Source of the DNA: a virus
Direction: 5' to 3' (one strand)
Virus record (IMG/VR): IMGVR_UViG_3300026094_000008
Coordinates: 1 to 46,779 of that record
Length of the DNA stretch: 46,779 bases
Below the pieces are notes generated by a model that saw only the letters and a program-made list of their open reading frames with translations, was not told the origin of the DNA and did no database searches. This document shows positions 3,390 to 30,183 of the stretch, one piece after another (position 1 is the first letter of the stretch; each line of letters starts with the position of its first letter). The position numbers and the translations under genes were made by a program.

Positions 3390-3750
3390 ATCAGTTACAA
3401 CTACAGACTTCGGTTATCAGCTTATGTGGGCTGACACTGACGACTACAATTGCAAAATTTTAATTTTTAATCAGCCAGGCGATATTACTCCTATGCATTT
3501 TCATAGAGATACTAACAAGTCTTGGTTTGTAAACGCAGGAAGATTTAGGATTAGGTGGATAGATACAACAGACGGTAATCTCTACGAAAAAGATGTCGTA
3601 GAAGGTAATGTGTTCCATGTCCCTACTTTGATGCCTGTAAGCATTGAATCACTATCTGCTAGTGCAACACTAGCACAGGTTAGCAATCAAGATCCAGACC
3701 TAGATTATTTTCATATCAATCCTGCTCGAGGAAATTTCGATGCTTCCTAA
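3376..3750 (+). CDS. Small cupin-fold protein
   Basis: This single-domain protein of 124 residues has a cupin-like metal-binding pattern. The first motif is PMHFHRDTNKSWFV at about residues 39-52, with His at 41 and 43 and a Gly-containing turn (NAGRFRIRW) after it. The second half has GNVFHVPTLMPVSIES, with a His-x-Pro like cupin motif 2. The usual motif-1 Glu is replaced by Ser/Trp. Cupins bind a metal and act as isomerases, dioxygenases or sugar/ligand binders; the reaction here is unknown. Genes of this kind occur near gp15/gp16 in marine T4-like phages. It overlaps both neighbours (14 nt and 11 nt). Confidence 0.65.
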   Translation: MSMGESVTTTDFGYQLMWADTDDYNCKILIFNQPGDITPMHFHRDTNKSWFVNAGRFRIRWIDTTDGNLYEKDVVEGNVFHVPTLMPVSIESLSASATLAQVSNQDPDLDYFHINPARGNFDAS

Positions 3751-6194: not shown

Positions 6195-7424
6195 ATGGTT
6201 ACTTCGAAAAAAGATCTTTTTAAAAACTATTATCAGCATAAAAAAAGAACAATATACGAAACATCTACTATCTATAAGCCGTCTATAAAAATTCCTTGTA
6301 GACTTTTTACTCCTAGTCGGCTTTTTAGTGTATGTAGGAAAGAAGGTATAAAGGAGTTTGCACATTTCTTTGAGATACAAAATTGCAACAGCAAACATGT
6401 GCTCTTTGTTGAATATGTTGGGAATAATAAATCTACTATAAGCAATTTAGAACAATTAATGTCTTTGAATACAGAGATTTTTTTTGTTTTAGATGATACT
6501 TATGAAGGATTATTAACTCAAGAGGAAGTAGATGAAATTATAAATTTATGTAACCAAAAAAATATTCCATACATATTTTATTCTAGTAATGAAAAACTTA
6601 AAGGACCTCAAGTATATTTTTTTAGTTATCACCTTTTGTACGATGTCTATGATAATATAAATGTACAATCTGATATAGTTAATCTTAACTTGTTTCCTCG
6701 GCAAAAAAAATTTTTGTGTATGAATAGAGAAGCAAGATTTCACAGATTAGAAATTGTTGACCATTTTTTGAAAAAAGATTTACTGAAACATTCCTTCGTG
6801 AGCTGTTTTAGCAGATACTGGCAAGATATTGAAACTACTGTAGTACAACAAGAACAGGCACTGAAATATCAAAGTCAAACCTATCTAGACGAAAATATAC
6901 TTTACAAAAATTTACCTGACGAATCAATTGAAAGACTTAAATCATATTTGCCGCTGCATTTAGATTTAAATGCTGGTCATCCTCAAGAAAAATCAAGACA
7001 CTTGCCAAATCCAAAAAAATATTATGAAAACAGTTATTGGAGTATCGTCGGTGAGCGAGATTTTTACGACGACCGATACCAAGGTTGGACGGAAAAGGTT
7101 TTAAAATGTTTCTTTTTTTATCATCCTTTTGTTATTGTAGGACTACCCCATACGTTAAAATCGCTACAAGAACTAGGATTTATTACATTTGGTCATGTAA
7201 TCGACGAAACCTACGATCAAATAGAAGATCATGAAAAAAGAATGACTGCAGTAAAATCTCAAATTGATTATCTTTCTAATTTAAATTATGCAGAGCATTT
7301 TAATTTGTATCAACAATTATTGCCTATTCTTAAACATAATAGACAGCACTATCTAAACCTTAATCTTAATTATAAACCCTCTATTTTTATTAATCAAGTA
7401 TTAGAATGGTATTATCATTCTTAG
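6195..7424 (+). CDS. Putative glycosyltransferase (GT10/fucosyltransferase-like C-terminus)
   Basis: This 409-residue soluble protein's C-terminal half has the look of a nucleotide-sugar binding glycosyltransferase. YWSIVGERDFYDD at about residues 278-290 is followed by GWTEKVLKCFFFYHPFVIVG at about 295-314 and then HTLKSLQELGFITF. The T/S-EK-x-h-hxxxPhIhhG pattern is that of GT10-type enzymes and of related phage proteins usually left unannotated. FLCMNREARFHRLE at about 173-186 begins the putative catalytic half. Its base composition is more AT-rich than the fibre genes, as for a late acquisition. It is the only plus-strand gene between two minus-strand blocks and overlaps the convergent 115-aa gene by 35 bp. 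Acceptor unknown. Confidence 0.5.
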   Translation: MVTSKKDLFKNYYQHKKRTIYETSTIYKPSIKIPCRLFTPSRLFSVCRKEGIKEFAHFFEIQNCNSKHVLFVEYVGNNKSTISNLEQLMSLNTEIFFVLDDTYEGLLTQEEVDEIINLCNQKNIPYIFYSSNEKLKGPQVYFFSYHLLYDVYDNINVQSDIVNLNLFPRQKKFLCMNREARFHRLEIVDHFLKKDLLKHSFVSCFSRYWQDIETTVVQQEQALKYQSQTYLDENILYKNLPDESIERLKSYLPLHLDLNAGHPQEKSRHLPNPKKYYENSYWSIVGERDFYDDRYQGWTEKVLKCFFFYHPFVIVGLPHTLKSLQELGFITFGHVIDETYDQIEDHEKRMTAVKSQIDYLSNLNYAEHFNLYQQLLPILKHNRQHYLNLNLNYKPSIFINQVLEWYYHS

Positions 7425-7737
7425 TTGGCATTTTATTAATTTCTGTTTGACGAATGCAAAATTGAAATAGAGTTTTGCTACATTCTTCAATATTTCCTTT
7501 TTCATAAAGGAAAGGTTGAAAATAAATTATCTGCGGCGAGCTTTCTTTAAATGTTGTTGACGAATCTATAACAATTTGTATATTCTCTAAATTCAATAAT
7601 GTATCTGTCACAATTAAATCTGCGTCTAATATAGTATCTACAAAAACAAATTTTTCTTTAGCAAGAAACTCTAACTCTTGTTTGAGAATTTTAGACTTTA
7701 AGTTTAAGAATAATTCGACGCAAGGTTTTTTAATCAT
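7390..7737 (-). CDS. Unknown 115-aa protein, last gene of the modification operon
   Basis: I recognise no family. It is AT-rich with alternating hydrophobic strands (FVFVDTILDADLIVTDT, IQIVIDSS, QIIYFQPF), which suggests a small alpha/beta fold. The start overlaps the upstream oxygenase gene by 4 nt (ATGA), so translation is likely coupled. Its 3' end overlaps the convergent 409-aa gene by 35 bp, so no dedicated terminator is visible. Confidence 0.65.
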   Translation of the reverse strand: MIKKPCVELFLNLKSKILKQELEFLAKEKFVFVDTILDADLIVTDTLLNLENIQIVIDSSTTFKESSPQIIYFQPFLYEKGNIEECSKTLFQFCIRQTEINKMPTKNDNTILILD

Positions 7738-8336
7738 TCTACAATTACTAAACTAAAATGAATAAGATATCTGTTTAATTCTGCTTCATTCAAAGTTATT
7801 TGATGTCTTAGATATCCGGGAAAAAACATCACGTTTCCTTGAGGCATTAATAAAGAAACTTCGGGAGAATTTATACTATTGTTTTCAATTATTGATAGAT
7901 TTGAATAGAAACTAACATCAACAACTGGAGATTCTATACTCAAGAAGCCAGACAACGGAGGAGTATTTAAAAAATAAATTCCATTCATAAAAACAAAAGT
8001 TTCCTTATGTGGCATTAACAAGCCTCCGGGACTTGTAATACTTCCAGACATATGTTTGATCCCTATTTTAGTAGGATCTTCTAAATACCATCTCTCTTTT
8101 AATTTAGGTATGATAGTCGAAATTTCTTCTACAAGGTTATCGAAATTAGGATTATGATGCAGATCACAGGGGCTAATAAATGTTTTATGATGTTTTCGAT
8201 TTTGATTAACAGTTTTTTCTTTATAACTATCTAAAACATCTATAATCTCCGATTGTTCATGTTCGTGCTTACTGTAAGTTGTATTGAAAATCGGAGTAGA
8301 AAAAATATCGCCTTCGTCTATAGTCGCGTCGGTCAT
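7734..8336 (-). CDS. 2OG-Fe(II) oxygenase-like protein (2OG-FeII_Oxy_5 type)
   Basis: This 200-residue protein starts with a DIFSTPIF segment typical of the phage 2OG-FeII_Oxy_5 family. It carries a core of GLLMPHKETFVFMNGIYFL (His110) and PQGNVMFFPGYLRHQI (His178) followed by R189 near the end. His110, His178 and Arg189 fit the metal and 2-oxoglutarate positions, but the usual acidic partner after the first His is Glu112 in HKE rather than Asp. The family uses 2-oxoglutarate and O2 to hydroxylate a substrate. The target here is unknown. It shares the IFSTPI signature with the protein at 12654-13172, so the two are probably paralogues. AAAGGAC precedes the ATG. Confidence 0.7.
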   Translation of the reverse strand: MTDATIDEGDIFSTPIFNTTYSKHEHEQSEIIDVLDSYKEKTVNQNRKHHKTFISPCDLHHNPNFDNLVEEISTIIPKLKERWYLEDPTKIGIKHMSGSITSPGGLLMPHKETFVFMNGIYFLNTPPLSGFLSIESPVVDVSFYSNLSIIENNSINSPEVSLLMPQGNVMFFPGYLRHQITLNEAELNRYLIHFSLVIVE

Positions 8337-8349
8337 CGTTGTCCTTTAA

Positions 8350-8682
8350 TTATCCTGTTCTATAAAGTATGTGTACGCCAAAAGGAGTTTGAATTGGTTC
8401 TGGATGTAAATTATCAATTTCGGTAATTAAACATGCACTCCATATTTCAGAGGTTATTTCGTCCGCCGAAAACCATCCCAGATCTCCACCTTTGACCCAA
8501 CTGTCGCACGCACTATTTTCTTTCACAGCTACTTTCCAGGTATATCCGCCTCGCAATAAACTTTCTATTATATCTTTTGCGTCCATTATTGCAAATGCCA
8601 AGTCTCTGCTGTGAGTAGAATTAATTGCTTCGTCCCAACTTAATAATATATGGGAGCATCTCATTTTTTGAGGATTAACCAT
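8350..8682 (-). CDS. Parvulin-type peptidyl-prolyl cis-trans isomerase
   Basis: This enzyme would speed cis-trans isomerisation of Xaa-Pro bonds. The whole 110-residue protein is one rotamase domain: CSHILLS (His11), the catalytic-loop SACDSWVKGGDLGWF with Cys59 and GGDLGWF at 65-71, and TPFGVHILYRTG at the end with His104. His11, Cys59 and His104 match the dual-His and Cys of the parvulin active site. There is no signal peptide or SurA/PrsA-type extra domain, so it should act in the cytoplasm. AGGAC lies before the ATG. It sits between two predicted 2OG oxygenases, some of which may be prolyl hydroxylases, which hints at a shared proline-rich or fibre substrate. That link is inference. Confidence 0.9.
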   Translation of the reverse strand: MVNPQKMRCSHILLSWDEAINSTHSRDLAFAIMDAKDIIESLLRGGYTWKVAVKENSACDSWVKGGDLGWFSADEITSEIWSACLITEIDNLHPEPIQTPFGVHILYRTG

Positions 8683-8690
8683 AATTTGTC

Positions 8691-9242
8691 CTATACAATA
8701 ATATCAAAATTTACAACAGCTCGGTTTTTTTGTTTTGGTATGCCTCCGCTGTGTTTAATTAAGCCATCAAATAAAACCACACGGCCTTTTTTCGGACTTA
8801 CTGTTTGTATTATTTCACCTTCTGAATTAAAAAATACGGTATCACCGTCTGCCTCATTTACATAATAAAGTATGACCCAATGAGGATAAGGCAAATCAGT
8901 ATGTGGTGCATAGTAATCTAAATTTGTATGTTGAGGTGTAATTAAAAACATCCTACCAAACAATATATCCTTTAATGAACCACCAGCAGCAGCACAAGTT
9001 GTAGTAGCAATTATAGAAAAATTTTCTAATTGCTCTGAGATTGTTGCACTAGATTTAAGTATATGACTAAAACTAATAGGAGTAAATCCGTTTTCTTCAG
9101 CTGTGGGTTCGTGTTTTACTGTGAATTTTACAGTAGGAAAAATTTCAGCATCGTTCACTTTTCCAAAGATTATTGCCTCATAATAATCCTGTAAAAAAGT
9201 AGGAATTATATCGTCAAATACATATATCTGATAGTCAGTCAT
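8691..9242 (-). CDS. 2OG-Fe(II) oxygenase, prolyl-4-hydroxylase-like
   Basis: This 183-residue protein has a complete double-stranded beta-helix oxygenase signature. It carries APHTDLPYPHWVILYYVN with His114 and Asp116 (HxD), GDTVFF, then KGRVVLFDGLIKHSGG with His164, and Arg174 ten residues later for 2-oxoglutarate. That arrangement is the one in prolyl-4-hydroxylase-like enzymes. The N-terminus resembles the small helix that opens these phage proteins (FDDIIPTFLQDYYEAII). It lies 8 nt from the parvulin gene and 14 nt after the small 70-aa gene. The substrate could be a peptidyl proline, a lysine or a small molecule; sequence alone does not decide. Confidence 0.85.
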   Translation of the reverse strand: MTDYQIYVFDDIIPTFLQDYYEAIIFGKVNDAEIFPTVKFTVKHEPTAEENGFTPISFSHILKSSATISEQLENFSIIATTTCAAAGGSLKDILFGRMFLITPQHTNLDYYAPHTDLPYPHWVILYYVNEADGDTVFFNSEGEIIQTVSPKKGRVVLFDGLIKHSGGIPKQKNRAVVNFDIIV

Positions 9243-9256
9243 TTTGCCACTTAAAT

Positions 9257-9469
9257 TTAAAAATTAGGATATTCGTCTGGCTCTTCGCCGGCACCCCATG
9301 GTACTTCTACGATTTCAGTATCTCCGCCCCACTCGGCAGCAACCTCCGCGGCTCTTTCTTTTGTTTTAAATTTAGTTATTTCTACATAGCCTGTTTTGTA
9401 AAGATCGTGGCTCTTCCATTCCTTTACTTTAGGATTATCAAGATTTGGTCTTTTTATGGAAAATGGCAT
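9257..9469 (-). CDS. Small conserved-looking protein of unknown function
   Basis: This 70-residue protein starts MPFSIKRPNLDNP. I place the start at 9469, not at the earlier in-frame ATG (9493), because AAAGGAG lies 7 nt before 9469 and that earlier ATG falls inside the upstream gene's 3' end. The centre (YVEITKFKTKERAAEVAAEW) suggests a compact alpha/beta fold with a helix, and the C-terminus is acidic. No family recognised. The stop is 14 nt before the start of the downstream oxygenase. Confidence 0.65.
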   Translation of the reverse strand: MPFSIKRPNLDNPKVKEWKSHDLYKTGYVEITKFKTKERAAEVAAEWGGDTEIVEVPWGAGEEPDEYPNF

Positions 9470-9483
9470 TTGTTTGCTCCTTT

Positions 9484-10041
9484 TTATATACACTCTGCAA
9501 AATCTATCAACGAATCAAAAACATATGTTCTTTCTTTGATTTTTCGATAGGTAAACTTATTTAAGTCTTTTTCGGTTTGTTCTCCATAACCTGTTCTTAC
9601 TAGCACCGGCCTGGCTCCGATTTTAATAGCTGCTTTTAAATCTGTGATTTTATCTCCTACAAAAAATCCTTTTTTAAACTTAATTGATGGATTGTTTTTT
9701 TCGCATTCTTTGAACATTCCAATGTTAGGCTTTGCATAAAAATCTTTTTTATCGTTAGATGAACTATAATATATTCCGTCAATATTTGGACATCCTGCTT
9801 CCCCTAATAACTCTAACATATATTGATGAACAGAATCAACATCTTCGGTTGTTAGTATTCCTTTATCAATTCCTCCTTGATTGGTTATTATAACTATCTT
9901 ATATCCTTTTTGCCTTAACAACGACACTGCTTCAAGAGATCTAGGTATAGGTATAAAATTAGTAGCGGTAGTTATACAATTGCCAGTATCCTTGTTTATT
10001 GTGCCGTCTCTATCTAATCCTATCACAGTATCAAGCATCAT
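9484..10041 (-). CDS. HAD-superfamily phosphatase, GmhB/HisB-N type
   Basis: This 185-residue HAD hydrolase has all four motifs. DRDGT at 10-14 gives the nucleophile Asp10 and acid/base Asp12. IITNQGG at about 51-57 has Thr53, KPNIGMF starts with Lys104, and FFVGDKITDLKAA has Asp130 and Asp134. The VLVRTGYG that follows is typical of D-glycero-D-manno-heptose 1,7-bisphosphate phosphatase (GmhB) and histidinol-phosphatase-like enzymes. It lacks the Cys cluster that binds zinc in most GmhB proteins. With a GT9 heptosyltransferase-like gene in the same operon, a role in heptose or other sugar-phosphate metabolism is plausible. It overlaps the upstream oxygenase gene by 11 nt. Confidence 0.8.
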   Translation of the reverse strand: MMLDTVIGLDRDGTINKDTGNCITTATNFIPIPRSLEAVSLLRQKGYKIVIITNQGGIDKGILTTEDVDSVHQYMLELLGEAGCPNIDGIYYSSSNDKKDFYAKPNIGMFKECEKNNPSIKFKKGFFVGDKITDLKAAIKIGARPVLVRTGYGEQTEKDLNKFTYRKIKERTYVFDSLIDFAECI

Positions 10042-10609
10042 AAGTATACCAACCTGTAATAATATATTTTTCTCCTTGATAAATCGGATTTCCCCTGTGC
10101 GGAAATGTAAATCCGCAAGGAAAAAATACCAATTTTCCTGCTACTGGTTTTAGTTTTATTCCTTGATATAAAAATTCAGTTTCGCCGCCTTCGTTTACAT
10201 CATTTAGATAGAGCATATAGGTTACTATTCTAGCCCCAGATCCAACATCTGCAGTTTCTTGATGCCATGCATGGTAGCCTTGATGAGGCATAGTTTTTTG
10301 AACACTCATGCCTTTAGGAGTATGCTGTTGAGATCTTTTAAGCATATCATATTTTTCTACATACTGAGTTGTATATATTTCGTTCATTCTGTCATAAAAA
10401 TACTTGCAAAGCCCAAAATCGTAGTGGAAGGTATTTTGCGTATGGGCCCAGTCAAACACTATTCGTTCGTCTGAGTTTTTTCCAATATCGTTCTGTAAAT
10501 TAGTAATGTTAGTTTCACGCATTAATTCAAAGTGGCGTATAACTTCGTTACAATATTCTTTTTCAAAAGCGTCTTTGTACTCTTCTATTCCGTTATAATC
10601 ATTTAACAT
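10031..10609 (-). CDS. 2OG-Fe(II) oxygenase (P4H-like, phage type)
   Basis: This 192-residue protein resembles the 2OG oxygenases that are widespread in marine T4-like phages. The core runs HAWHQETA (His116, Glu118), ARIVTYMLYLNDVNEGGETE at 126-145, LKPVAGKLVFFPCGFTFPHR with His171, and GEKYIITGWYTY with Lys181 in place of the usual Arg. The first ligand pair is HxE instead of the more usual HxD, but the GGETEF and FPxxFTFxHRG signatures are those of the family. AAGGAG is correctly placed before the ATG. Substrate unknown; see the operon finding. Confidence 0.85.
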   Translation of the reverse strand: MLNDYNGIEEYKDAFEKEYCNEVIRHFELMRETNITNLQNDIGKNSDERIVFDWAHTQNTFHYDFGLCKYFYDRMNEIYTTQYVEKYDMLKRSQQHTPKGMSVQKTMPHQGYHAWHQETADVGSGARIVTYMLYLNDVNEGGETEFLYQGIKLKPVAGKLVFFPCGFTFPHRGNPIYQGEKYIITGWYTYDA

Positions 10610-11307
10610 TTTTTCAAACTCCTTATTCTATTCTTGAATAGATTATATGCGTCATCTAATTTTAAATTTGGATACCATTTTTTAATAGATGTTGCTTTCT
10701 GCTGTTCTATCATTATTTCTGTTTTTCTTTTATCATTGAGAATTTCTTTTAAATTAATTTTTTCTCTAGACTTAAATTTTACAGCATAAAGAGGATCGCC
10801 GCGTGAAAAACTTATTCGTTCGCAATTAGGATCTAAATAAAAGCTGAAATTAGTTGGTCTAATCCATTTGCTAATATTATATTCTCCACAAATATTAGTG
10901 ATAGGACTAGTATGTAAAGGTGGATCAATCACTTCTATTAATAGATCTTTTTTGGATAAAAAGAAATATTGTAAATGGATTGTACACATAGGAACATTGT
11001 TCAATAATTCGTGTTCTGGATAACTAACAAATAGAAAAGAATCTAAGCTGTCCTTAGATCTATCGTTCACCATGCTAAAACTGTTATGTTTGTTTTTATA
11101 AATTGTAAAATCTAATGGACTTAAAATATAATAGACATTTTTTAAATAATCAACTGTTGCAGGACATTTTAAAAAATCAAATTTTCCAATATTTTTAATA
11201 TACTTTAGTGCGTTTATAGGAGTTTGAATTAACGGATCCAATTCAAAAAGTCCTAGGTCCGTTCGCAAATTTTCTAGCATTCCAAAATATTCTATATTCT
11301 GTGTCAT
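10603..11307 (-). CDS. Unknown 234-aa protein of the modification operon
   Basis: I do not recognise this protein with confidence. It is basic and AT-rich. The middle has LNNVPMCTIHLQYFFL and DPPLHTSP, followed by WIRPTNFSFYLDPNCERISF at about 150-169 and SRGDPLYAVKFKSRE. These WxRP, FxxF and GDPL features resemble a group of unnamed proteins that sit near 2OG oxygenases in marine phages (possibly DUF6065-like, low certainty). No signal peptide or membrane segment is seen. It overlaps the downstream oxygenase gene by 7 nt and starts 6 nt after the SGNH-like gene. Confidence 0.6.
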   Translation of the reverse strand: MTQNIEYFGMLENLRTDLGLFELDPLIQTPINALKYIKNIGKFDFLKCPATVDYLKNVYYILSPLDFTIYKNKHNSFSMVNDRSKDSLDSFLFVSYPEHELLNNVPMCTIHLQYFFLSKKDLLIEVIDPPLHTSPITNICGEYNISKWIRPTNFSFYLDPNCERISFSRGDPLYAVKFKSREKINLKEILNDKRKTEIMIEQQKATSIKKWYPNLKLDDAYNLFKNRIRSLKKC

Positions 11308-11313
11308 ATTTTA

Positions 11314-12144
11314 TTATTCTATATTTTGCTCTTTCAAAAAAGGTATATAATAATCTGCGATTAACTTGTGTACATATTCGTTATAGTGTTCATCGTCTAC
11401 CTTTTCTTCTTCTAGATCTTTTGAACTAAACTGTTTTAAAAAATTTAATGCGTCAACATCTGCAATTGTTGTTTTTTTTAGTTTAGTATAAAAATTATTA
11501 ACTTCTTTAGGAATAAAACATCTTGAGTTGATATTCCATAGATACATGTTAGCATTGTTTATATTGCATAGCATATCACAGAACGCAATATCTTTCATAT
11601 AATCTTGCTGCTCTAGGTGTGTCTGCAGATAATGATACATTTTAACATACATATACGAAGAAGTTCTTAAGTTTGGCTGCAGAGTCGGTGTGGTATTTTT
11701 TATATAGGGCATATTATCGTAATCATAGGCTTCGGGTTTGAAGTAATCCTGTAACCATTTACCACTATAAATATCCGGCTGACATTGGCCAATTGTCCAT
11801 CTATCTATAAGATTATCACATTCTGCCTTCTCTGTAAAGAAGTCTAATGGAAAAATATCTGTCTCAGCCAAACTAGGATTTATCGCAATTGGAAATCTGC
11901 CCCAATAAGTAGATTGGATATAGACTTCTTCAATGTCAGAATATGTTTTGAAGGCATGTGAGAGAAAATTAACTATCTCTCGATTTCCCATACCAGCGCT
12001 GGCCATAATTATTGATTTTTTATTATTTTTTTGGGCATATATTTCTGCATAATTATTTTTTTGCCAAACATTATTTCCTTTGTTTATTAACAATTCATGA
12101 TAACCTATAGAGTGACTGCAACCTATAAAAAGTGTTCTTCCCAT
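11314..12144 (-). CDS. SGNH/GDSL-like hydrolase
   Basis: This 276-residue protein opens with GRTLFIGCSHSIGYHE. GCSHS matches SGNH block I (G-D-S-H-S variants), with Ser10 the likely nucleophile. ASAGMGNREIVNFL follows at about residues 48-61 as block II-like, with Gly and Asn. Near the C-terminus Asp250 and His253 (DDEH) give the D-x-x-H catalytic pair of block V. SGNH enzymes are esterases or acetyltransferase-linked hydrolases that often act on sugar O-acetyl groups, so a role on glycans fits the neighbouring sugar enzymes. No Shine-Dalgarno is visible before the ATG and the upstream 7 nt are pure AT. Cytoplasmic; no signal peptide. Confidence 0.6.
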   Translation of the reverse strand: MGRTLFIGCSHSIGYHELLINKGNNVWQKNNYAEIYAQKNNKKSIIMASAGMGNREIVNFLSHAFKTYSDIEEVYIQSTYWGRFPIAINPSLAETDIFPLDFFTEKAECDNLIDRWTIGQCQPDIYSGKWLQDYFKPEAYDYDNMPYIKNTTPTLQPNLRTSSYMYVKMYHYLQTHLEQQDYMKDIAFCDMLCNINNANMYLWNINSRCFIPKEVNNFYTKLKKTTIADVDALNFLKQFSSKDLEEEKVDDEHYNEYVHKLIADYYIPFLKEQNIE

Positions 12145-12151
12145 AATAATA

Positions 12152-12652
12152 TTAATTTTTAAATAAGTCGAAAAAGAAGACTTGTGTTAATCTTCCAGTT
12201 GCAGGATTATTACCAAATCCAGATTTTAAGCTACTATGTAAATTACTGCCTCTATAAATAATGAGCCTATTATAGATATTAGCAACTGCATCTACTAATT
12301 CAAATTCACCATCAATTTCTCTAAAAATACCTGTGCCTGATTCTAAAGGAGCATCTGGAGTAAGATAAAGTACGCCGGCCCAGTCAGCATCGTCGCTGTG
12401 TACCCAGGACTCAGCATCTTCGTAACATAGCTGAAAAGAAAAACTATCCATTTTCCAATCTTTTATTTTTGCATTTAAAATTTTTTCAAATCTTTTTTGA
12501 ATAAAATTTTGATATTCTTCGTCAGCTGCTAGTGTTCTAATGCCTGGAAAAGTGCCAGTAACTGGAAAATCTAATTCTATAACCTGTTCTCTTATAAGAT
12601 CTGGACTATCTAAAAAATTATCGATTACTAATAAACTAGGCAATAAACTCAT
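12152..12652 (-). CDS. 2OG-Fe(II) oxygenase-like protein (DUF6445 type)
   Basis: This 166-residue protein begins LLVIDNFLDSPDLIREQVIE, the usual start of the DUF6445-like group (an unnamed relative of the 2OG oxygenases). PGIRT at 36-40 is its conserved turn. The oxygenase core shows SWVHSDDADWAGVLYL with His85 and Asp87, SGTGIFR, YRGSNLHSS with His139, and GRLTQVFFF with Arg154. All four metal and cosubstrate residues are present in order. It is a shorter relative of the 229-aa protein at 13169-13858. The intervening 172-aa gene belongs to a different oxygenase subfamily. Confidence 0.75.
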   Translation of the reverse strand: MSLLPSLLVIDNFLDSPDLIREQVIELDFPVTGTFPGIRTLAADEEYQNFIQKRFEKILNAKIKDWKMDSFSFQLCYEDAESWVHSDDADWAGVLYLTPDAPLESGTGIFREIDGEFELVDAVANIYNRLIIYRGSNLHSSLKSGFGNNPATGRLTQVFFFDLFKN

Positions 12653-12653
12653 A

Positions 12654-13172
12654 TTACATGTAATCCATATAAATGTTTCCGCTTATTGTAGAGCCAACAT
12701 TTCCAGCCATTACAAAATGTTCTAGATAACTTGGAAAAATTATAATATCACCTTTTTTAAGTTGGGGTCTAAAATCTAAAGGAAAATCTGATAAATTAGT
12801 TCCTAGGTGATTTTGAATATCTTTAAAAATAGGGCTCATAAAAACAGTTTTTGAAGAATCTACAGTTTCATAAATTACGAAACTCCATGAACTATGAGGA
12901 TGGATATGAATATCCTGCCAATCATGTTCTTGATATTTGTTTCTCCAAATTTCTCCGAATCTAGGATTGTCTCCTATTAAGTTCGCACCAAGATTGTTAC
13001 TGATTACTTCGGCTAGATAATTTACAGTTTCTTCTGAAACAGTATGATCTTGACCTAATGTACTAGGTGTCTGACTAAGCCATATTTTTTCCGTAGGAGG
13101 ATTTCCTATATCTATCTTGTCAAGGTCAATTGTATCTATAAATATCGGCGTTGAAAAAATATCATATCTCAT
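12654..13172 (-). CDS. 2OG-Fe(II) oxygenase-like protein (2OG-FeII_Oxy_5 type)
   Basis: This 172-residue protein has the DIFSTPIF start seen in the 200-aa protein at 7734-8336. The core has DWQDIHIHPHSSWSFVIYE with His89, His91 and His93, then KKGDIIIFPSYLEHFVM with His152. The C-terminal Ser-x-Ser/Arg cosubstrate position reads STISGN, so the usual Arg is not obvious. This could mean altered cosubstrate binding or a pseudo-enzyme. The family's HxHPxSxxSGxxY motif is partly kept. Its 5' end overlaps the 229-aa gene by 4 nt (ATGA), consistent with translational coupling. Confidence 0.7.
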   Translation of the reverse strand: MRYDIFSTPIFIDTIDLDKIDIGNPPTEKIWLSQTPSTLGQDHTVSEETVNYLAEVISNNLGANLIGDNPRFGEIWRNKYQEHDWQDIHIHPHSSWSFVIYETVDSSKTVFMSPIFKDIQNHLGTNLSDFPLDFRPQLKKGDIIIFPSYLEHFVMAGNVGSTISGNIYMDYM

Positions 13173-13858
13173 ATAAAAAACATCTGCATTAATCTAGGAC
13201 TATCTTTTGTAAACGAGTTTTTGGTAATGTAAGCTGTATGTAGCATATTTCTCTTATATAATATTAGTCTATTAAATCTCATTTCTGCTGTGTATATTTT
13301 TTTAAAATCCTTGTAATCATCTGTTATATATTCTGGATAATTGTTTGGATTTAGATCATCATCGGGATAATGACTAGGAGTTATGTCTCCTTTGTATGTA
13401 TAAAAACTTGTGCCTCCTGTGCAGCTTTCTGGACTATTAAGAAAAATTCCTGCGGCAAATCCTTCGGTGCCGTCTATGTGAGGACATTGTGCTGCTAATT
13501 CAGTTGTATCATTTATAAGATTTACACAAAACGTAGATTTTTCCACAAGGCAGGTACAATCATAGTCTCTTGTATCTTTATAATATACATCATTTATTAA
13601 TTGATTAAATAAATTTGACAAGAAGCCTAAATAATACGATGCGTCTACTCTGCCACCAGGAACTCCGGCAACAATCGAAGGATTATATGTAGGCGGTATA
13701 CTTAGAGCTAGTTTCTGTACTTTTTCAGGATTCATATAAAAATTATCAATAATAATAATTTTTTGTCCAGAATGTATTTCTTCTATTTTTACATTTAAAG
13801 CAGAGTTCGGTGAAAAAAAAGAAATTTCCTCTGCTAGATTATTAAATATTCCTTGCAT
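13169..13858 (-). CDS. 2OG-Fe(II) oxygenase-like protein (DUF6445 type, long form)
   Basis: This 229-residue member of the same group as the 166-aa protein has IIIIDNFYMNPEKVQKLALS at 34-53, then VAGVPGGRVDASYYL at 63-77. The core is CPHIDGTEGFAAGIFLN with His127 and Asp129, CTGGTSFYTYKG, RLILYKRNMLHTAYI with His207, and SPRLMQMFF with Arg222. All key positions are kept. It has an inserted acidic loop (about 157-190) absent from its short relative. No Shine-Dalgarno is visible. A 33-nt AT-rich gap separates it from the carbamoyltransferase gene; I see neither a clear promoter nor a hairpin there. Confidence 0.75.
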   Translation of the reverse strand: MQGIFNNLAEEISFFSPNSALNVKIEEIHSGQKIIIIDNFYMNPEKVQKLALSIPPTYNPSIVAGVPGGRVDASYYLGFLSNLFNQLINDVYYKDTRDYDCTCLVEKSTFCVNLINDTTELAAQCPHIDGTEGFAAGIFLNSPESCTGGTSFYTYKGDITPSHYPDDDLNPNNYPEYITDDYKDFKKIYTAEMRFNRLILYKRNMLHTAYITKNSFTKDSPRLMQMFFI

Positions 13859-13891
13859 AATACTTTATAACACGCTATTCACTTTATTTCT

Positions 13892-15703
13892 TTAGTTCTC
13901 ACTTTTAATTAATAAATCGTGCTCAGGCAAATATAGATATTCAATTTGACTATTTACTAAAGTTCTAACAGCATCGTCAAGGGTTTCAACTAATGGTTCA
14001 CCGCCTAAATTAAAGCTGGTATTAAATAATATCGGAATGTCTGTTAATTTATAAAATTCTTCTATTAATTCATAAAAGATTTTATTTTGCTCTTTAGATA
14101 CTGTTTGTATTCGACAAGTACCGTCGACATGAATAGTACTAGGAATTTTTTCAGCTACTCCGGGCATGCAATTCATAGCATACATCATATGCGGAGACTC
14201 TGTCATTCCCTTCATATCAAACCAATTATTTGCATGTTCTTTTAATACCGAAGCAGCAAACGGTCTAAAATACTCACGTCGTTTTACCCTATTTACAATG
14301 TCTTTTCCGTTTTCTGCTGTAGGATCAAACAGCAAACTTCTATTTCCTAATGCTCTAGGTCCGGCTTCGGCCCTTCCTTGAAATAATGCTACAATATTTT
14401 TTTCTCTAATTAGGTCAATAATATCGCTTACTGTAACAGTTTCTATATTTGTAGCATTGTACTTTTGATAAACTTCATTGATATTATCTAATGAATAAGT
14501 ATACTTAGGACCAAGATAAAGAGATTCTGCACGCGGTCTCTGCTTTGAATCTTGAGTAGTTTTATGATTCCAATATAATGCTGCACCCATTGCAGTTCCG
14601 GCGTCGTTTGATACTGGCTCTACATAAAAATTAATATCGTGTTTATTAAGATCGTCGAGGTAGAAGTAATTAGCAACACAGTTTAATCCGTAGCCACCAC
14701 TAAAAACTACATTTTTAATTCCAGTCTTTTCGACTGCTTTTAGTATTAGTTCAAGGGCAAACTCTTGTGTTTCTTTTTGAACAGCATATGCCATGTCTCG
14801 CCGATTTTGTAACAAAGTTACATCTCCGTCATAATCCGGAGGAGTTAACAACTCATCATAGCGAGCAGCGTTTAAAAAAGCACCGTTAGGATAAGTTGGA
14901 ATTATTACATTTCTGTCTGAAGTTTTCCATCTACTACCGGTGCCGCTGTCTGTAAAAATTTTAGGAATATTAGGATTAGGGTTACCATATGGCGAAAGCC
15001 CCATAGTTTTTCCGGCTTCGATACTTTGCCATCCGCAGTACTGTGTAACAGATTCATATGATTTAACAATTCCGCCGGTGTCATCAATAAAACATTCGTA
15101 TGTTCCGTTGTGTTCTTCTCTAGCGTTAGACGAATGAAGGTTAGGAATATATGCATGGCCGATAGGGCCGTTTCCGCCTATGTGCTTGTATACTGTTCTA
15201 AAATCTGCAGGATAATTACAGGTGAACATACTCTCTAATTCAAAACCTATTTGTTGCTCACCGTCCCATTCCATATTTAAAAATGTGCCAGCGCCGTCAA
15301 TTATAACAGCAACAGCTTCTTTGAATCCGCTTCTATAAAAAGCAGCCTGAGCATGTAGCTTATGATGTTGGTCAGCTAAATCAATAACTTGAGGATGATT
15401 GTACATATCTATGTCAGAAGAACGATCAATTAGTCCTAGTTTTCTCGCAAGTCCTGTATAAACATCATCGTTGGTGAAATCAACCCGGCCAGCCGTGGTG
15501 TTAAGAGGTTGTGTGTGTGCTACTACTAGATAATCTATTTTATCTGTATAGTCCAATATCTTAATCATACTAGCGTAAGGGCCACCGTCGTACTTTTGCC
15601 GACTAAACCGTTCTTCTTCTGAACTAAAAACAATTTCACCGTCTTTTAGTAGGCATACTCCTGCGTTATGTCCTCGTGTAATGCCGGCTATCCAAAGACT
15701 CAT
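13892..15703 (-). CDS. NodU/CmcH-type carbamoyltransferase
   Basis: This 603-residue enzyme would transfer carbamoyl from carbamoyl phosphate, via a carbamoyl-adenylate, to a hydroxyl, typically on a sugar or antibiotic. The N-terminal YrdC/Kae1-like domain has GITRGHNAG with His12, ADQHHKLHAQAAFY around residues 110-124, and VIIDGAGTF at about 133-141, the metal-site residues of this family. GKTMGLSPYG and FSGGYGLNC follow. The C-terminal domain carries GRAEAGPRALGNRSLL and the late FNTSFNLGGEPLVET. Length and order are those of a complete two-domain enzyme. Homologues occur in marine T4-like phages. The gene starts 1 nt into the stop of the GT9-like gene (TAATG), so the pair are co-translated, which suggests a sugar acceptor. 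Confidence 0.9.
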   Translation of the reverse strand: MSLWIAGITRGHNAGVCLLKDGEIVFSSEEERFSRQKYDGGPYASMIKILDYTDKIDYLVVAHTQPLNTTAGRVDFTNDDVYTGLARKLGLIDRSSDIDMYNHPQVIDLADQHHKLHAQAAFYRSGFKEAVAVIIDGAGTFLNMEWDGEQQIGFELESMFTCNYPADFRTVYKHIGGNGPIGHAYIPNLHSSNAREEHNGTYECFIDDTGGIVKSYESVTQYCGWQSIEAGKTMGLSPYGNPNPNIPKIFTDSGTGSRWKTSDRNVIIPTYPNGAFLNAARYDELLTPPDYDGDVTLLQNRRDMAYAVQKETQEFALELILKAVEKTGIKNVVFSGGYGLNCVANYFYLDDLNKHDINFYVEPVSNDAGTAMGAALYWNHKTTQDSKQRPRAESLYLGPKYTYSLDNINEVYQKYNATNIETVTVSDIIDLIREKNIVALFQGRAEAGPRALGNRSLLFDPTAENGKDIVNRVKRREYFRPFAASVLKEHANNWFDMKGMTESPHMMYAMNCMPGVAEKIPSTIHVDGTCRIQTVSKEQNKIFYELIEEFYKLTDIPILFNTSFNLGGEPLVETLDDAVRTLVNSQIEYLYLPEHDLLIKSEN

Positions 15704-16740
15704 TATTTAACATCTCCGGTCGATGTAAAAGGTTTTGCTCCTGGAATTAATTTTGGCTGACTAGGGTTAACATTTGTACTTGCTTGTAATTTTGATTTTT
15801 TTGATTTTCCTACTCTTTTACGAACAATATTACAAATAGTTTCGATCTGAGTTTCATCTAATTCCATTATTTCGTCGTTGTGACGATCTTGTTCATCCTC
15901 CATTGTTAATCTAATCGGAGCATAAACTCTTTTTCCGTTTCCAACATCAATAATATCAAAGTTAGGATCCTCAGGATAAGAAATATTTATGGGGTATGTA
16001 CTTCCTGTGATAATAGTAGCTGTTTTGCCAAGTGCTTTAGCAATATGCTGTCCTAAGCTGTCGCAACCTAAAAAATGATCTGCTACTTCTATTATGCCGC
16101 ACCAAACTTTTAAATCAGGTATTTCTGGTTGAGCAATAGGAGATTCGTTATTTTTAGTTTCAACATTAACCGGAATCTCGCTCATTATAATGATTCCGTA
16201 TTCTTTCCTTAATTTTTGTATAATATCTATAATATTATTAAGTTGAAAACTTCTTGATGTAGAATCCACTATAAAATTATTTATATTTTCAATACTTCTG
16301 CCAAACGGTTGAATAACTATAACTTTATCAAATCCAGTTACTTGCTTAATTTCTTCTACAACACTTGCTCCTGATATCATTTCATGTTTGTTTATAAAAA
16401 TATTAGGCTTATTGAGATTTCTAATGCCTTTATTGTTTATCGCGATGTCAAATGCCTGAGACAAGTTACACTTTTGATTGTAATATTCCCAAATTCTATA
16501 AGGCTCTGGACTTATACAATTTCTTACTCGAACTTTTTCCTCAAATAAGTTTTGGTGCCAAACATCATATGCTTTCTTTCCTAATAAAGGATGTCCTTTA
16601 AAAAAGTCTCTTCCTCCTTCACAAACAATAATAAAATCATCTTCAGGATTTTCTTCTGCGTATAATTCAAATGCAGGAATAGAACAAATAACGCGGCCAG
16701 CACCGCCATTTATAAAAAACGCTGTAGATCTTTTAGTCAT
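15703..16740 (-). CDS. GT9-like glycosyltransferase (heptosyltransferase type)
   Basis: This 345-residue protein begins with FFINGGAGRVICSIPAFELY, the N-terminal Rossmann loop seen in ADP-heptose:LPS heptosyltransferases. The C-terminal half has VIVIQPFGRS at about 140-149 and ADHFLGCDSLGQHIAKALGK at about 221-240, then TATIITGSTYP, which fit the nucleotide-sugar site of GT9. The last about 50 residues are basic and disordered-looking. The usual N-terminal membrane-attachment helix is absent. It is the first gene of the operon, with a late promoter at 16761 and AAGGA before the ATG, and it is coupled to the carbamoyltransferase. Donor and acceptor unknown. Confidence 0.7.
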   Translation of the reverse strand: MTKRSTAFFINGGAGRVICSIPAFELYAEENPEDDFIIVCEGGRDFFKGHPLLGKKAYDVWHQNLFEEKVRVRNCISPEPYRIWEYYNQKCNLSQAFDIAINNKGIRNLNKPNIFINKHEMISGASVVEEIKQVTGFDKVIVIQPFGRSIENINNFIVDSTSRSFQLNNIIDIIQKLRKEYGIIIMSEIPVNVETKNNESPIAQPEIPDLKVWCGIIEVADHFLGCDSLGQHIAKALGKTATIITGSTYPINISYPEDPNFDIIDVGNGKRVYAPIRLTMEDEQDRHNDEIMELDETQIETICNIVRKRVGKSKKSKLQASTNVNPSQPKLIPGAKPFTSTGDVK

Positions 16741-16760: not shown

Positions 16761-16767
16761 TATTTAT
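16761..16767 (-). promoter_or_regulatory. Late promoter ATAAATA for the modification operon
   Basis: The minus strand reads CAATAAATATCTT here, 20 nt before the ATG at 16740. It follows directly after the terminator of the chaperone gene, so the 14-gene unit down to 7390 should be transcribed separately and late, like the structural genes. Confidence 0.65.
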
Positions 16768-16786
16768 TGAGGATGGTTTAAGTATC

Positions 16787-16813
16787 AAAAAAAAGTGGCA
16801 TAATGCCACTTTT
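16787..16813 (-). terminator. Intrinsic terminator after the tail-assembly chaperone gene
   Basis: A perfect inverted repeat (AAAAGTGGCA / TGCCACTTTT, arms 16791-16800 and 16804-16813) surrounds the loop TAA. On the minus strand it ends in a run of eight T. It lies 12 nt after the stop of the 231-aa gene and just before the promoter of the next unit. Confidence 0.85.
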
Positions 16814-16824
16814 CTAAAAATATT

Positions 16825-17520
16825 CTAATCTTCTAGAGGATCACTAAACGGTACCTGGGGGAACATAAACAACGCAACGTGCGGCGGAACATTATTTGCC
16901 ATCATAACGTCTGGCAGGTCTCTTAATAGCTGTCTATAGTTTCTCCATTCTGTTTTAAGAGATTCTGGCATGTCGTCAGCTATTTCGCTATCAGAATTTG
17001 ATAATAATGCATCACGATGTTTTCTAATAAAGTTCCAATCGGGTAGATCGCCAACATCCTCTCCTAGAAATACATCAGTAACAGTTCTTGTAGGTATAGT
17101 TACATTGTTATTACTATCGACGATTATACCAAATTTGTCATATATATCGGCCGGTTGTAAAGGTAGCTGATAAGATAATCTATCATATCCTTCTATTGCA
17201 GGAGATTGGGGATGGAATACTTCTTCTGTATAATCTTCTTCTGCTTCGTCTATTACAGGTCCTCGTAATTGACATAACAGCGGATTTTCTACACAATCAA
17301 TTTCTACATATCTACAACCTTCAGGAACTGGTCTGCCGTCGGCTTTCTCCTCCGCAGTTATAGGACCCATTGCTTCTTTGCCTGTTTCGTTATCGATAAT
17401 TAGGTAGAGTTTATCTGGCCCGTCATAAGTTGCAGTTCTGGTTTTACCTTGATTTTGACTATGGTCTACCATATATTCGTCTGGTAATCCAAATTCATAA
17501 TCTACTTCAATTAAAGGCAT
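16825..17520 (-). CDS. Tail-fibre assembly chaperone-like protein
   Basis: This 231-residue acidic protein's C-terminal part (about 160-205) has the Phage_tail_APC-like pattern: IRKHRDALLSNSDSEIADDM followed by LKTEWRNYRQLLRDLPDV. The signature RdxLLxxSDW...DxP...WxxYRQxLRdlP is kept, except that the Trp after SD is Ser. Such chaperones help fibre or tail subunits fold and trimerise. The N-terminal part (MPLIEVDYEFGLPDEYMVD) is unlike any family I know. It lies directly after the three Cys-rich genes, which are possible clients. A late promoter (17548) and TAGGAG precede it, and a strong terminator follows. Confidence 0.65.
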   Translation of the reverse strand: MPLIEVDYEFGLPDEYMVDHSQNQGKTRTATYDGPDKLYLIIDNETGKEAMGPITAEEKADGRPVPEGCRYVEIDCVENPLLCQLRGPVIDEAEEDYTEEVFHPQSPAIEGYDRLSYQLPLQPADIYDKFGIIVDSNNNVTIPTRTVTDVFLGEDVGDLPDWNFIRKHRDALLSNSDSEIADDMPESLKTEWRNYRQLLRDLPDVMMANNVPPHVALFMFPQVPFSDPLED

Positions 17521-17547: not shown

Positions 17548-17554
17548 TATTTAT
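17548..17554 (-). promoter_or_regulatory. Late promoter ATAAATA for the chaperone gene
   Basis: The minus strand reads TTAATAAATACG here, 28 nt before the ATG at 17520. It overlaps the stop codon of the Cys-rich gene just upstream. It gives the chaperone an extra promoter inside a longer readthrough unit. Confidence 0.55.
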
Positions 17555-18357
17555 TAATAATAAGTTAGTTTAACGACGCCGCTGCCACCAGTACCGCCTT
17601 GTCCACAACAACTGCTGCCACAATAATTAGTATGGGCGGTTTGGCCACCAGCAGCATAAGGAACTGACCAGCAACCGCAGCGGATCCAACAAAAGTTACT
17701 ATGCTGGTCTATCTTACCTACATTTAGAAATATTCCGGTTGATGCTGAACTAATCTGTTTCCAGCAGTGACACGTACCGCCAGGATATTGATACGGAGTT
17801 GCGCCGTACTGTCCGTTGTGATTAAATGATGCCATGTCGCCGTCGTTGTCGCCGGGTTGTCGGCAATAGGACGGAAAAGAAAAACAACTACTATTCCAAC
17901 TGCCATTTGCGCAGCCTCTTGCGCCGCCGCACGCACAAAACCCACTAAGTCCAAATCCATTTACATATGATGTACATCCACAACAGCCGTTACATTCTCG
18001 ACTATAACAAGGATAAACACCACCGGCGCACACCGTGTAAGTACATCCGACATCAGATGTTATAGTTTTGGTATTATAGCTACCGCCGCCGCCGCCGGCG
18101 AAGTGCTGACATCTATTACAGGAGCATGTGCCGGCTCCATTGCCGCCAGCACCCCACAGTTCCCAACGCAACACTCTTACATTAGTAGGAACAGTCCAAG
18201 CACAACAGCATCCACTAGTACATGCACCCGGCGAACCATAAAACCATTTTGTACAGAAACTCGATCTCGTAGTGTCTGCAATGTTTTCTTGGGTTATAGC
18301 CTGAGCTTGAATGTTTTCGCTAGTAAGTTTTGCTTTGTAGCTTTTATAACTTGCCAT
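17554..18357 (-). CDS. Cysteine/glycine-rich fibre-like protein, paralogue 1
   Basis: This 267-residue protein has 28 cysteines. It opens MASYKSYKAKLTSENIQAQA, and a Cys-dense region follows. Recurrent features shared by all three paralogues include a CCCAWTVP segment near residue 45, WELWGAGGNG, CSCxRC, CAGGVYPC, SREC, GFGLSGFC or NGFNLSGFC, CHCW, CWIRCGCWSVPY, SSCCGQGGTGG and a final VKLTYY. The WELWGAGG and GQGGTGG parts resemble the glycine-rich domain found at the tips of phage fibres, but with Cys added throughout. No signal peptide is seen, so any disulphides would form after release, or the thiols bind metal. AGGA precedes the ATG. Confidence 0.75.
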   Translation of the reverse strand: MASYKSYKAKLTSENIQAQAITQENIADTTRSSFCTKWFYGSPGACTSGCCCAWTVPTNVRVLRWELWGAGGNGAGTCSCNRCQHFAGGGGGSYNTKTITSDVGCTYTVCAGGVYPCYSRECNGCCGCTSYVNGFGLSGFCACGGARGCANGSWNSSCFSFPSYCRQPGDNDGDMASFNHNGQYGATPYQYPGGTCHCWKQISSASTGIFLNVGKIDQHSNFCWIRCGCWSVPYAAGGQTAHTNYCGSSCCGQGGTGGSGVVKLTYY

Positions 18358-18366
18358 TATGAATTC

Positions 18367-19149
18367 CTACACATATGTTATTTTTACCAGTCCAGGACCA
18401 CCTGTGCCGCCTTGTCCGCAACATCCACTACCACAATATGTACTCATTGCGCCTTGTCCGCCGTGACCATAAGGCACTGACCAACATCCGCAGCGTATCC
18501 AACACTGTCTAATACTCTGGTTAACTGTTCCGCCTATAATTGCTGCCGGGCCCGGAAACACTTCCTGAACGTGGCAGTGACAATACGCACTAGTTGTGCT
18601 CCAGCCCGGTACCATTGTCTGTTGATAAAAGTCGCCATTATTATCTCCTGGTGCACGACAAAATCCATTATAAGCAAAGCACCCTGTATTCCAACTGGTA
18701 TTTGCTCTTCCTGTTTGGCCTCCGCAAGCACAAAAGCCACTTAGGTTAAACCCATTTGCATATGTAGTGCATCCATTACAGGCTACGCATTCTCTACTTA
18801 AACAGGGATAAACGCCGCCTGCGCATACTGTATAAACACAGCCTTCGCTAGTACCTATGCTTTTTGTATTATAAGAACCGCCCTGCGCTCCTTGATAGTG
18901 ATGACATCTTCTACAGGAACACGCGCCATGGCCGTTGCCACCGGCGCCCCATAACTCCCAGGTTATTTTTTTAACTCCTGTAGGAACAGTCCAGGCACAA
19001 CAGCATCCACTTGAACATCGACAAGGATTTCCGTAGATCCATTTTACACCAAATGTATTCAGTGCATTATTATCAATGTCAGCATCTTGAATAGATCCGT
19101 CGGTGATTTCTTCGGCTGATATTTTTTTATAACTCGAATACGTTGCCAT
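18367..19149 (-). CDS. Cysteine/glycine-rich fibre-like protein, paralogue 2
   Basis: This 260-residue protein has 26 cysteines on the same scaffold as paralogue 1. It is much closer to paralogue 3: three DNA blocks are identical or nearly so (18372-18414, 18728-18843, 18983-19048 against 19167-19209, 19520-19635, 19775-19840). Between these blocks the middle segment (residues about 150-215, for example QTGRANTSWNTGC) diverges strongly. The N-terminal 35 residues also differ (MATYSSYKKISAEEITDG), as expected for an attachment region adapted to a different partner. It ends GPGLVKITYV. Function inferred from the glycine-rich fibre-tip resemblance only. Confidence 0.75.
   Translation of the reverse strand: MATYSSYKKISAEEITDGSIQDADIDNNALNTFGVKWIYGNPCRCSSGCCCAWTVPTGVKKITWELWGAGGNGHGACSCRRCHHYQGAQGGSYNTKSIGTSEGCVYTVCAGGVYPCLSRECVACNGCTTYANGFNLSGFCACGGQTGRANTSWNTGCFAYNGFCRAPGDNNGDFYQQTMVPGWSTTSAYCHCHVQEVFPGPAAIIGGTVNQSIRQCWIRCGCWSVPYGHGGQGAMSTYCGSGCCGQGGTGGPGLVKITYV
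18728..18843 (-). repeat. 116-bp near-identical block shared with 19520-19635
   Basis: 115 of 116 bases match 19520-19635 (offset 792). It codes for the CAGGVYPCLSREC to NGFNLSGFC part of paralogue 2. The neighbouring coding sequence diverges, so the block suggests gene conversion or strong local constraint. Confidence 0.9.
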
Positions 19150-19161
19150 TAAATTTTCTCA

Positions 19162-28174: not shown

Positions 28175-28177
28175 CTT

Positions 28178-30148: not shown

Positions 30149-30166
30149 TAAATAACTCCGTTACTA

Positions 30167-30173
30167 TATTTAT
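30167..30173 (-). promoter_or_regulatory. Late promoter ATAAATA for the 656-aa/2385-aa fibre unit
   Basis: The minus strand reads ATGATAAATATAG here, 19 nt before the ATG at 30148. It is the only clear promoter for the unit running through 17554, since the gaps between those genes are 3-15 nt. Confidence 0.65.
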
Positions 30174-30183
30174 CATACACATC

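What the first reader, a model, noticed from the sequence alone, without database searches (positions are those of the whole stretch)
7390..16740. Late operon with six 2OG-oxygenase-like proteins, a parvulin, sugar enzymes and a carbamoyltransferase
One late-promoter unit carries six proteins with 2OG-Fe(II) oxygenase features of at least three types (7734, 8691, 10031, 12152, 12654, 13169), a prolyl isomerase, a GmhB-like phosphatase, an SGNH-like hydrolase, a GT9-like enzyme and a NodU-type carbamoyltransferase. Hydroxylases plus a prolyl isomerase recall the way collagen-like proteins are matured, and hydroxylated residues are common attachment points for sugars and carbamoyl groups. Since it is expressed late and lies next to fibre genes, it may modify virion proteins. 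A glycan-remodelling role is the alternative.
Basis: partly seen in the sequence, partly recalled or inferred. Interest (0 to 1): 0.75.

Follow-up and report, generated by a model that had tools for sequence, protein, structure and literature searches.

The report
Phage tail-fibre tip modification gene island
A marine T4-like phage carries, directly behind three cysteine-rich host-binding tail-fibre tip proteins, an operon of sugar-transfer, carbamoyl-transfer and hydroxylating enzymes that is always found beside such tips in relatives, so it probably decorates the tip of the virus chemically rather than serving host metabolism, as similar genes have been explained so far.

Summary
Window 7390-16740 (minus strand) is one compact 14-gene unit. 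It follows a strong terminator and a late-promoter-like ATAAATA. All six oxygenase-like proteins are supported by family matches and conserved metal-binding residues. The parvulin, GmhB-like phosphatase and NodU-type carbamoyltransferase are confirmed. The 'GT9-like' protein is confirmed by fold (GT9 Z 22; WaaF 19.7; TibC 19.1). The SGNH call is unproven.

New here: the neighbouring 10%-Cys, 16%-Gly proteins have the fold of the receptor-binding tail fibre gp24 of cyanophage Pam3 (Z 16.6). Linkage is strict both ways: 62/62 GT9-like loci with room upstream carry Cys/Gly tips, and 61/61 Cys/Gly loci with room downstream carry the GT9-like gene. NodU follows, with a median of five 2OG-type genes. 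135 of 145 loci have exactly three tip paralogues. ADP-heptose genes occur in 10/11 long relatives.

Best reading: a fibre-tip glycosylation and tailoring island, working like adhesin heptosylation (TibC/TibA) but not a member of that family. This rests on genomics only; no modification has been shown. The collagen analogy fails (no Gly-X-Y repeats). Published readings of such genes (LPS clusters, stuffer DNA, nitrogen metabolism, DNA repair, pyrimidine synthesis) fit less well.

The parts
15703..16740 (-). GT9-fold glycosyltransferase-like protein (T4-GC302, phrog_8954); candidate fibre-tip sugar transferase
   Evidence: AF2 pLDDT 79.6, pTM 0.83; VIA Z 22.0 GT9 3tov, 19.7 WaaF, 19.1 TibC, 18.6 WaaC
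13892..15703 (-). NodU/TobZ-type O-carbamoyltransferase
   Evidence: PF16861 3e-58, PF02543 1e-23; PDB 7xb6, GdmN, novobiocin carbamoyltransferase, TobZ
13169..13858 (-). DUF6445 2OG-type oxygenase
   Evidence: PF20043 6.6e-21; H127-x-D129 67/67, H207, R222 kept
12654..13172 (-). 2OG-FeII_Oxy_5-like protein, HxH..H, no canonical Arg
   Evidence: PF13759 3.9e-9
12152..12652 (-). short DUF6445 2OG-type oxygenase
   Evidence: PF20043 1.4e-15; H85-x-D87 34/34
11314..12144 (-). GCSHS-motif protein (SGNH-like, unproven), conserved in the island
   Evidence: no Pfam match; relatives in many loci; weak GDSL in one relative
10603..11307 (-). unknown, phrog_17480; relatives lie beside NodU in other islands
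10031..10609 (-). prolyl-4-hydroxylase-like 2OG oxygenase (HxE..H..K, GEKYIITGW)
   Evidence: PF13640 1e-14; PDB P4H 5hv0/3itq 9e-8; H116/H171 36/36
9484..10041 (-). GmhB-like heptose bisphosphate phosphatase
   Evidence: NF006506 2.6e-38, below its cut-off; PDB 4pnh, 2gmw
9257..9493 (-). small conserved island protein, unknown
   Evidence: no family; relatives next to the GmhB-like gene
8691..9242 (-). 2OG-type oxygenase
   Evidence: PF13640 2.7e-5, below cut-off; HxD..H..R 8/8
8350..8682 (-). parvulin-type prolyl isomerase
   Evidence: PF00639 1.4e-10
7734..8336 (-). 2OG-FeII_Oxy_5 oxygenase
   Evidence: PF13759 5e-8
7390..7737 (-). last gene of the unit, unknown
   Evidence: no family
16761..16767 (-). 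late-promoter-like ATAAATA of the unit
   Evidence: position only
16780..16826 (-). intrinsic terminator separating the fibre genes from the unit
   Evidence: -14.3 kcal/mol, z -5.4
16825..17520 (-). tail-fibre assembly chaperone (Phage_tail_APC/TFA)
   Evidence: PF16778 1.6e-10; phrog_4912
17554..18357 (-). Cys/Gly-rich fibre-tip paralogue 3 (28 Cys)
   Evidence: PF21722 1.6e-7
18367..19149 (-). Cys/Gly-rich fibre-tip paralogue 2; fold of Pam3 gp24
   Evidence: pLDDT 82.5; VIA Z 16.6 7ypx
19162..19941 (-). Cys/Gly-rich fibre-tip paralogue 1
2949..3750 (+). nudix and cupin genes, also part of the island in relatives
6195..7424 (+). unknown 409-aa protein; relatives beside NodU in L036 and L037

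Best explanation
A late-expressed island matures the phage's own receptor-binding fibre tip. Shown here: three Cys/Gly-rich proteins have a tail-fibre receptor-binding fold (TNF-like plus glycine-rich domain), are followed by a fibre-assembly chaperone gene, and are then always followed by a GT9-fold glycosyltransferase and a NodU-type carbamoyltransferase. Inferred: (1) 2OG oxygenases, one of them prolyl-4-hydroxylase-like, hydroxylate tip residues and/or the sugar; (2) the GT9-like enzyme puts a heptose or similar sugar on the tip, with ADP-heptose made by phage HldE, GmhB-like and HldD enzymes plus a host GmhA; (3) the NodU-type enzyme carbamoylates sugar hydroxyls; (4) accessory enzymes that vary between phages (halogenase, cupin, SGNH-like, methyltransferase) tailor it further, changing receptor binding, stability or evasion.
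For: Two-way linkage: 62/62 GC302 loci with room upstream carry Cys/Gly tips, and 61/61 Cys/Gly loci with room downstream carry GC302. The same order holds in S-SSM7, Sf-FS3, S-CAM3 and P-SSM2, in S-CAM1, single-cell viruses and MAG contigs, and across very divergent tips. Tip fold: Pam3 gp24 fibre Z 16.6 and Bxb1 tail tip Z 12.2; Pam3 gp24 needs a TFA chaperone and recognises the host (PMC9608196). GC302 fold: GT9/WaaF/TibC Z 19-22, next fold class below 12; TibC heptosylates the protein adhesin TibA (PMC4358343). NodU's solved relatives are antibiotic-tailoring O-carbamoyltransferases (that several act on sugars is general knowledge). HldE and HldD genes occur in 10/11 long relatives, GmhB-like in 56/61. 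Cyanobacterial LPS lacks heptose (PMC4515613), yet P-SSM2 and S-SSM7, phages of cyanobacteria, carry pathway genes. A distant Vibrio-phage homologue lies between two giant tail-region genes without sugar genes. Control: Syn9 lacks the tips and the island at the same position.
Against: No modification has been observed. Fibre genes and accessory genes share insertion hot spots, so linkage need not mean substrate. The two locus sets overlap and contain near-duplicate contigs (about 36 GC302 types below 90% identity). Where WaaC/TibC have a catalytic Asp, GC302 has an invariant Arg16 (motif comparison, WaaC from memory), so its chemistry may differ. The window fragment itself has no HldE, and no GmhA was found in eight records. 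Which residues are modified is unknown.
Confidence: 0.6

Rival explanations
1. Host-surface remodelling: the enzymes change LPS or exopolysaccharide of the infected cell, for example to block superinfection or release trapped progeny, and lie next to fibre genes because both are receptor-related.
For: ADP-heptose genes, a GT9 fold close to WaaC/WaaF, epimerase and NodU; such genes were called LPS clusters in 2010 (PMC3037559).
Against: Strict linkage is to fibre tips. Cyanobacterial LPS lacks heptose. The unit follows a late-promoter-like site, late for remodelling. The Vibrio homologue sits alone between tail-region genes.
Confidence: 0.2
2. Auxiliary metabolism: 2OG oxygenases act on free 2-oxoglutarate or in DNA repair, and the carbamoyltransferase serves pyrimidine synthesis.
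For: Published suggestions (PMC3037559; PMC9146016).
Against: The carbamoyltransferase is of the NodU/TobZ type, not an aspartate carbamoyltransferase. The oxygenases are sequence-diverse, cluster with fibre-tip genes and carry no DNA-repair domains. Median five per island.
Confidence: 0.06
3. Small-molecule or peptide natural-product cluster, with the Cys/Gly-rich proteins as precursors.
For: Halogenases, radical SAM, FkbM methyltransferase and an amidinotransferase-like protein in some relatives; very Cys-rich substrate-like proteins.
Against: The Cys/Gly proteins have a full tail-fibre fold, lie in the fibre operon with a fibre chaperone, and their N-terminal 'MAxYxSYKK' end is conserved like a docking segment rather than a leader. 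No protease or exporter was noticed in the island, though none was searched for.
Confidence: 0.06
4. The enzymes modify other virion proteins, such as the long fibres 21017-35658, and the Cys/Gly proteins are only neighbours.
For: Long fibre genes are also near wherever the contig reaches that far.
Against: Long fibres are present without the island (Syn9); the Cys/Gly tips were not found without it.
Confidence: 0.08

Closest known systems
TibC/TibA and AAH/AIDA-I (bacterial autotransporter heptosyltransferases, BAHT)
   Same: GT9-type GT-B fold (Z 19.1 to TibC) and ADP-heptose supply; a dedicated transferase acting on a host-binding adhesin.
   Different: No N-terminal beta-barrel, no conserved four-Cys iron finger, Arg16 at the catalytic-Asp position; the substrate would be a phage fibre; coupled to NodU and 2OG enzymes.
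P-SSM2 / S-SSM7 'LPS gene clusters' (Sullivan et al. 2010, PMC3037559)
   Same: Same island: GC302-308 genes in the same order.
   Different: Published as LPS genes or possible stuffer DNA; the passages read do not mention linkage to Cys-rich tips, the tip fold or the GT9 fold.
Pam3 gp24-gp25 tail fibre and chaperone (7ypx, PMC9608196)
   Same: Tip fold and a fibre-assembly chaperone.
   Different: Pam3 has one homotrimeric gp24; here three Cys-rich paralogues plus modifying enzymes.
VirX1 halogenase of cyanophage Syn10 (6qgm)
   Same: Best PDB match of the S-SSM7 island halogenase (3e-51).
   Different: The window has no halogenase; VirX1 is listed without a biosynthetic cluster (PMC8407142).
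NodU, TobZ, novobiocin-type O-carbamoyltransferases
   Same: Both domains of the family, PDB matches to TobZ and GdmN.
   Different: Viral, fixed to fibre-tip genes.

Membership tests
GT9 glycosyltransferase (fold family) | GT-B fold of GT9 enzymes | tested here: met
   Z 22.0/19.7/19.1/18.6 to 3tov/WaaF/TibC/WaaC over 250-280 residues
GT9 glycosyltransferase (fold family) | catalytic Asp in the first loop | tested here: inconclusive
   invariant R16 in GG-AGRV-SIPA; WaaC motif recalled, no residue-level superposition
BAHT (TibC/AAH) | N-terminal beta-barrel before the GT domain | tested here: not met
   GC302 residue 1 aligns to TibC residue 90; barrel is TibC 1-97
BAHT (TibC/AAH) | four-Cys iron finger in the C-lobe | tested here: not met
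   only C40 and C91 invariant, both in the N-lobe; TibC needs C339, 342, 358, 370
BAHT (TibC/AAH) | heptosylates a protein adhesin | not testable with these tools
   linkage only
NodU-type O-carbamoyltransferase | Carbam_trans_N (Kae1-like) and Carbam_trans_C domains | tested here: met
   PDB matches
2OG-Fe(II) oxygenases (six proteins) | HxD/E..H facial triad | tested here: met
   kept in relatives for 7734, 8691, 10031, 12152 and 13169; 12654 has HxH..H
2OG-Fe(II) oxygenases (six proteins) | 2OG-binding Arg/Lys | tested here: inconclusive
   present in five; not conserved in 12654
Pam3-type receptor-binding fibre (17554-19941) | TNF-like plus glycine-rich domain fold | tested here: met
   Z 16.6, rmsd 3.0, 194 residues; one paralogue modelled
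Collagen-like maturation | Gly-X-Y repeat substrate | tested here: not met
   no run of 5 or more units in window proteins, none of 8 or more in relatives
ADP-heptose pathway | GmhA, HldE, GmhB, HldD | tested here: inconclusive
   HldE and HldD matches in 10/11 long relatives, below the equivalog cut-offs; GmhB-like in the window; no SIS_2/GmhA in 8 records

The most novel reading that the evidence does not exclude
Hundreds of marine T4-like phages build a chemically hypermodified receptor-binding tip: a trio of Cys-rich chains (possibly one heterotrimer) hydroxylated, glycosylated with heptose, carbamoylated and in many phages halogenated by a dedicated, modular phage-encoded pathway. This would also give the orphan viral halogenase VirX1 a native type of substrate.
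Probability: 0.35. Interest if true: 0.88.

Novelty: new variant of a known kind. Interest (0 to 1): 0.68.

Why it matters
It offers one testable function for cyanophage and marine-phage genes that have been explained separately as LPS genes, stuffer DNA, nitrogen metabolism, DNA repair or pyrimidine synthesis. It suggests that host recognition in abundant marine phages may depend on chemical decoration of the fibre tip, and gives a substrate hypothesis for phage 2OG oxygenases, NodU enzymes and halogenases.

Tried and rejected
Collagen analogy: rejected, no G-X-Y repeats. Late promoter by motif count: not above chance; only its position counts. Nucleotide-level relatives in phage records: none. 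Sequence-profile match of GC302 to PDB: none credible; fold comparison was needed. GmhA: the annotated 'phosphoheptose isomerase' (GC306) is not GmhA. SGNH assignment of 11314: no support beyond a motif. The tool's terminator scan missed the 16780-16826 hairpin, probably because the stem absorbs the T-run. Host by photosystem genes: absent from window-like records, but these are fragments, so not decisive. Three NodU 'misses' (L038-L040) do carry NodU next to GC302 in the gene-order listing. Literature: ten searches found no report linking these genes to fibre-tip modification; most subscription journals are not held, and a remembered paper on mycobacteriophage virion glycosylation could not be opened. 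No viral-library search was made for the GC302 model.

Full report
What is there. The window is a 46.8-kb IMG/VR virus fragment of a T4-like phage (gp15 homologue at 1466-2935). Between 16740 and 7390 on the minus strand lie 14 tightly packed genes (gaps -11 to +33 bp). They are separated from the fibre genes by a strong terminator and follow an ATAAATA late-promoter-like site about 20 nt before the first ATG. The motif alone is no more frequent than chance in the window, so only its position counts.

Enzymes. Family searches confirm all six oxygenase-like proteins, the parvulin, the GmhB-like phosphatase and the NodU-type carbamoyltransferase. Alignments with relatives show the metal-binding residues kept. 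One (10031) resembles prolyl 4-hydroxylases in sequence and in its GEKYIITGW motif. One (12654) keeps HxH..H but lacks the usual Arg. The 'DNA endonuclease V' and 'minor coat protein' labels attached by PHROGs to these families look like mis-annotations.

The GT9-like protein. 15703-16740 has no Pfam match and no useful PDB sequence match. Its AlphaFold model (pLDDT 79.6, pTM 0.83) matches GT9 enzymes (Z 22.0), WaaF (19.7), the protein heptosyltransferase TibC (19.1) and WaaC (18.6); the next fold class scores below 12. It lacks TibC's beta-barrel and iron finger, and an invariant Arg16 sits where the catalytic Asp is expected. It is therefore not filed as a BAHT enzyme; it may work like one.

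The neighbours. Upstream lie three proteins with about 10% Cys and 16% Gly. The model of one of them (pLDDT 82.5) matches the receptor-binding fibre gp24 of cyanophage Pam3 (Z 16.6 over 194 residues) and the Bxb1 tail tip (Z 12.2). [quoted passage not shown] A TFA/Phage_tail_APC gene follows the tips here (16825-17520).

Co-occurrence. In 80 GC302-centred contigs, all 62 with room upstream carry the Cys/Gly proteins. NodU follows in 71 of 74 by a strict script, and the other three have NodU beside GC302 in the gene-order listing. There is a median of five 2OG-type genes, with at least one in all 61 loci that have 8 kb downstream. The GmhB-like gene is in 56, an SGNH/GCSxS-motif protein in 51, a flavin halogenase in 36 and the parvulin in 9. 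Conversely, all 61 Cys/Gly-centred loci with room downstream carry GC302. S-SSM7, Sf-FS3, S-CAM3, P-SSM2, S-CAM1, single-cell viruses and MAG contigs agree. Syn9 has neither the tips nor the island at the same position. The contig sets overlap and include near-duplicates (about 36 GC302 types below 90% identity).

Three tips. 135 of 145 loci hold exactly three Cys/Gly paralogues. In the window's lineage, first, second and third genes form separate clades (support 0.99, 0.91, 0.996). This suggests one heterotrimer or three specialised tips; which one is not known.

Sugar supply. HldE and HldD relatives are present in 10 of 11 long related records. A GmhB-like gene is in the window. No GmhA was found in eight records including S-SSM7 and P-SSM2. 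The window fragment lacks HldE. Cyanobacterial LPS lacks heptose (PMC4515613), which speaks against host LPS as the acceptor in phages such as P-SSM2. The window's own host is unknown; photosystem genes were not found in window-like records.

Interpretation. The simplest account of a strict tip-chaperone-GT9-NodU order is that the enzymes modify the tip. Shown: gene order, two-way linkage, folds, catalytic residues. Inferred: substrate, sugar identity, order of reactions, effect on adsorption. The published explanations (LPS clusters or stuffer DNA, nitrogen metabolism and DNA repair, PMC3037559; pyrimidine synthesis, PMC9146016) do not account for the linkage. Host-glycan remodelling remains the main rival.

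Noticed in passing
17554-19941: Three Cys/Gly-rich tip paralogues with position-specific orthology within lineages (135 of 145 loci have exactly three); possible heterotrimer.
   Followed up: partly
L002:33055-33390 (S-SSM7): Gene annotated 'phosphoheptose isomerase' (T4-GC306) is not GmhA; best NCBIfam match is the EcbF/BcbF capsule phosphatase.
   Followed up: partly
L002:29511-30998 and halogenases in 36 of 61 islands: Flavin halogenases related to VirX1 (6qgm) recur in the island.
   Followed up: partly
L036:6139-8065 and 11442-12368: Island relative with two radical SAM proteins and an amidinotransferase-like protein; the last is a reading by eye.
   Followed up: no
L163:9001-9738 (Vibrio phage D505): GC302 homologue (245 aa) alone between 2109- and 1756-aa tail-region genes, without NodU.
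   Followed up: partly
L060 (261.8-kb record): Large island-bearing record without psbA/psbD, so the island may not be confined to cyanophages.
   Followed up: no
6195-7424: 409-aa protein of unknown family, convergent with the unit; relatives lie beside NodU in L036 and L037.
   Followed up: partly
8691-9242, 12152-13858: PHROG labels 'DNA endonuclease V' and 'minor coat protein' sit on oxygenase families.
   Followed up: yes
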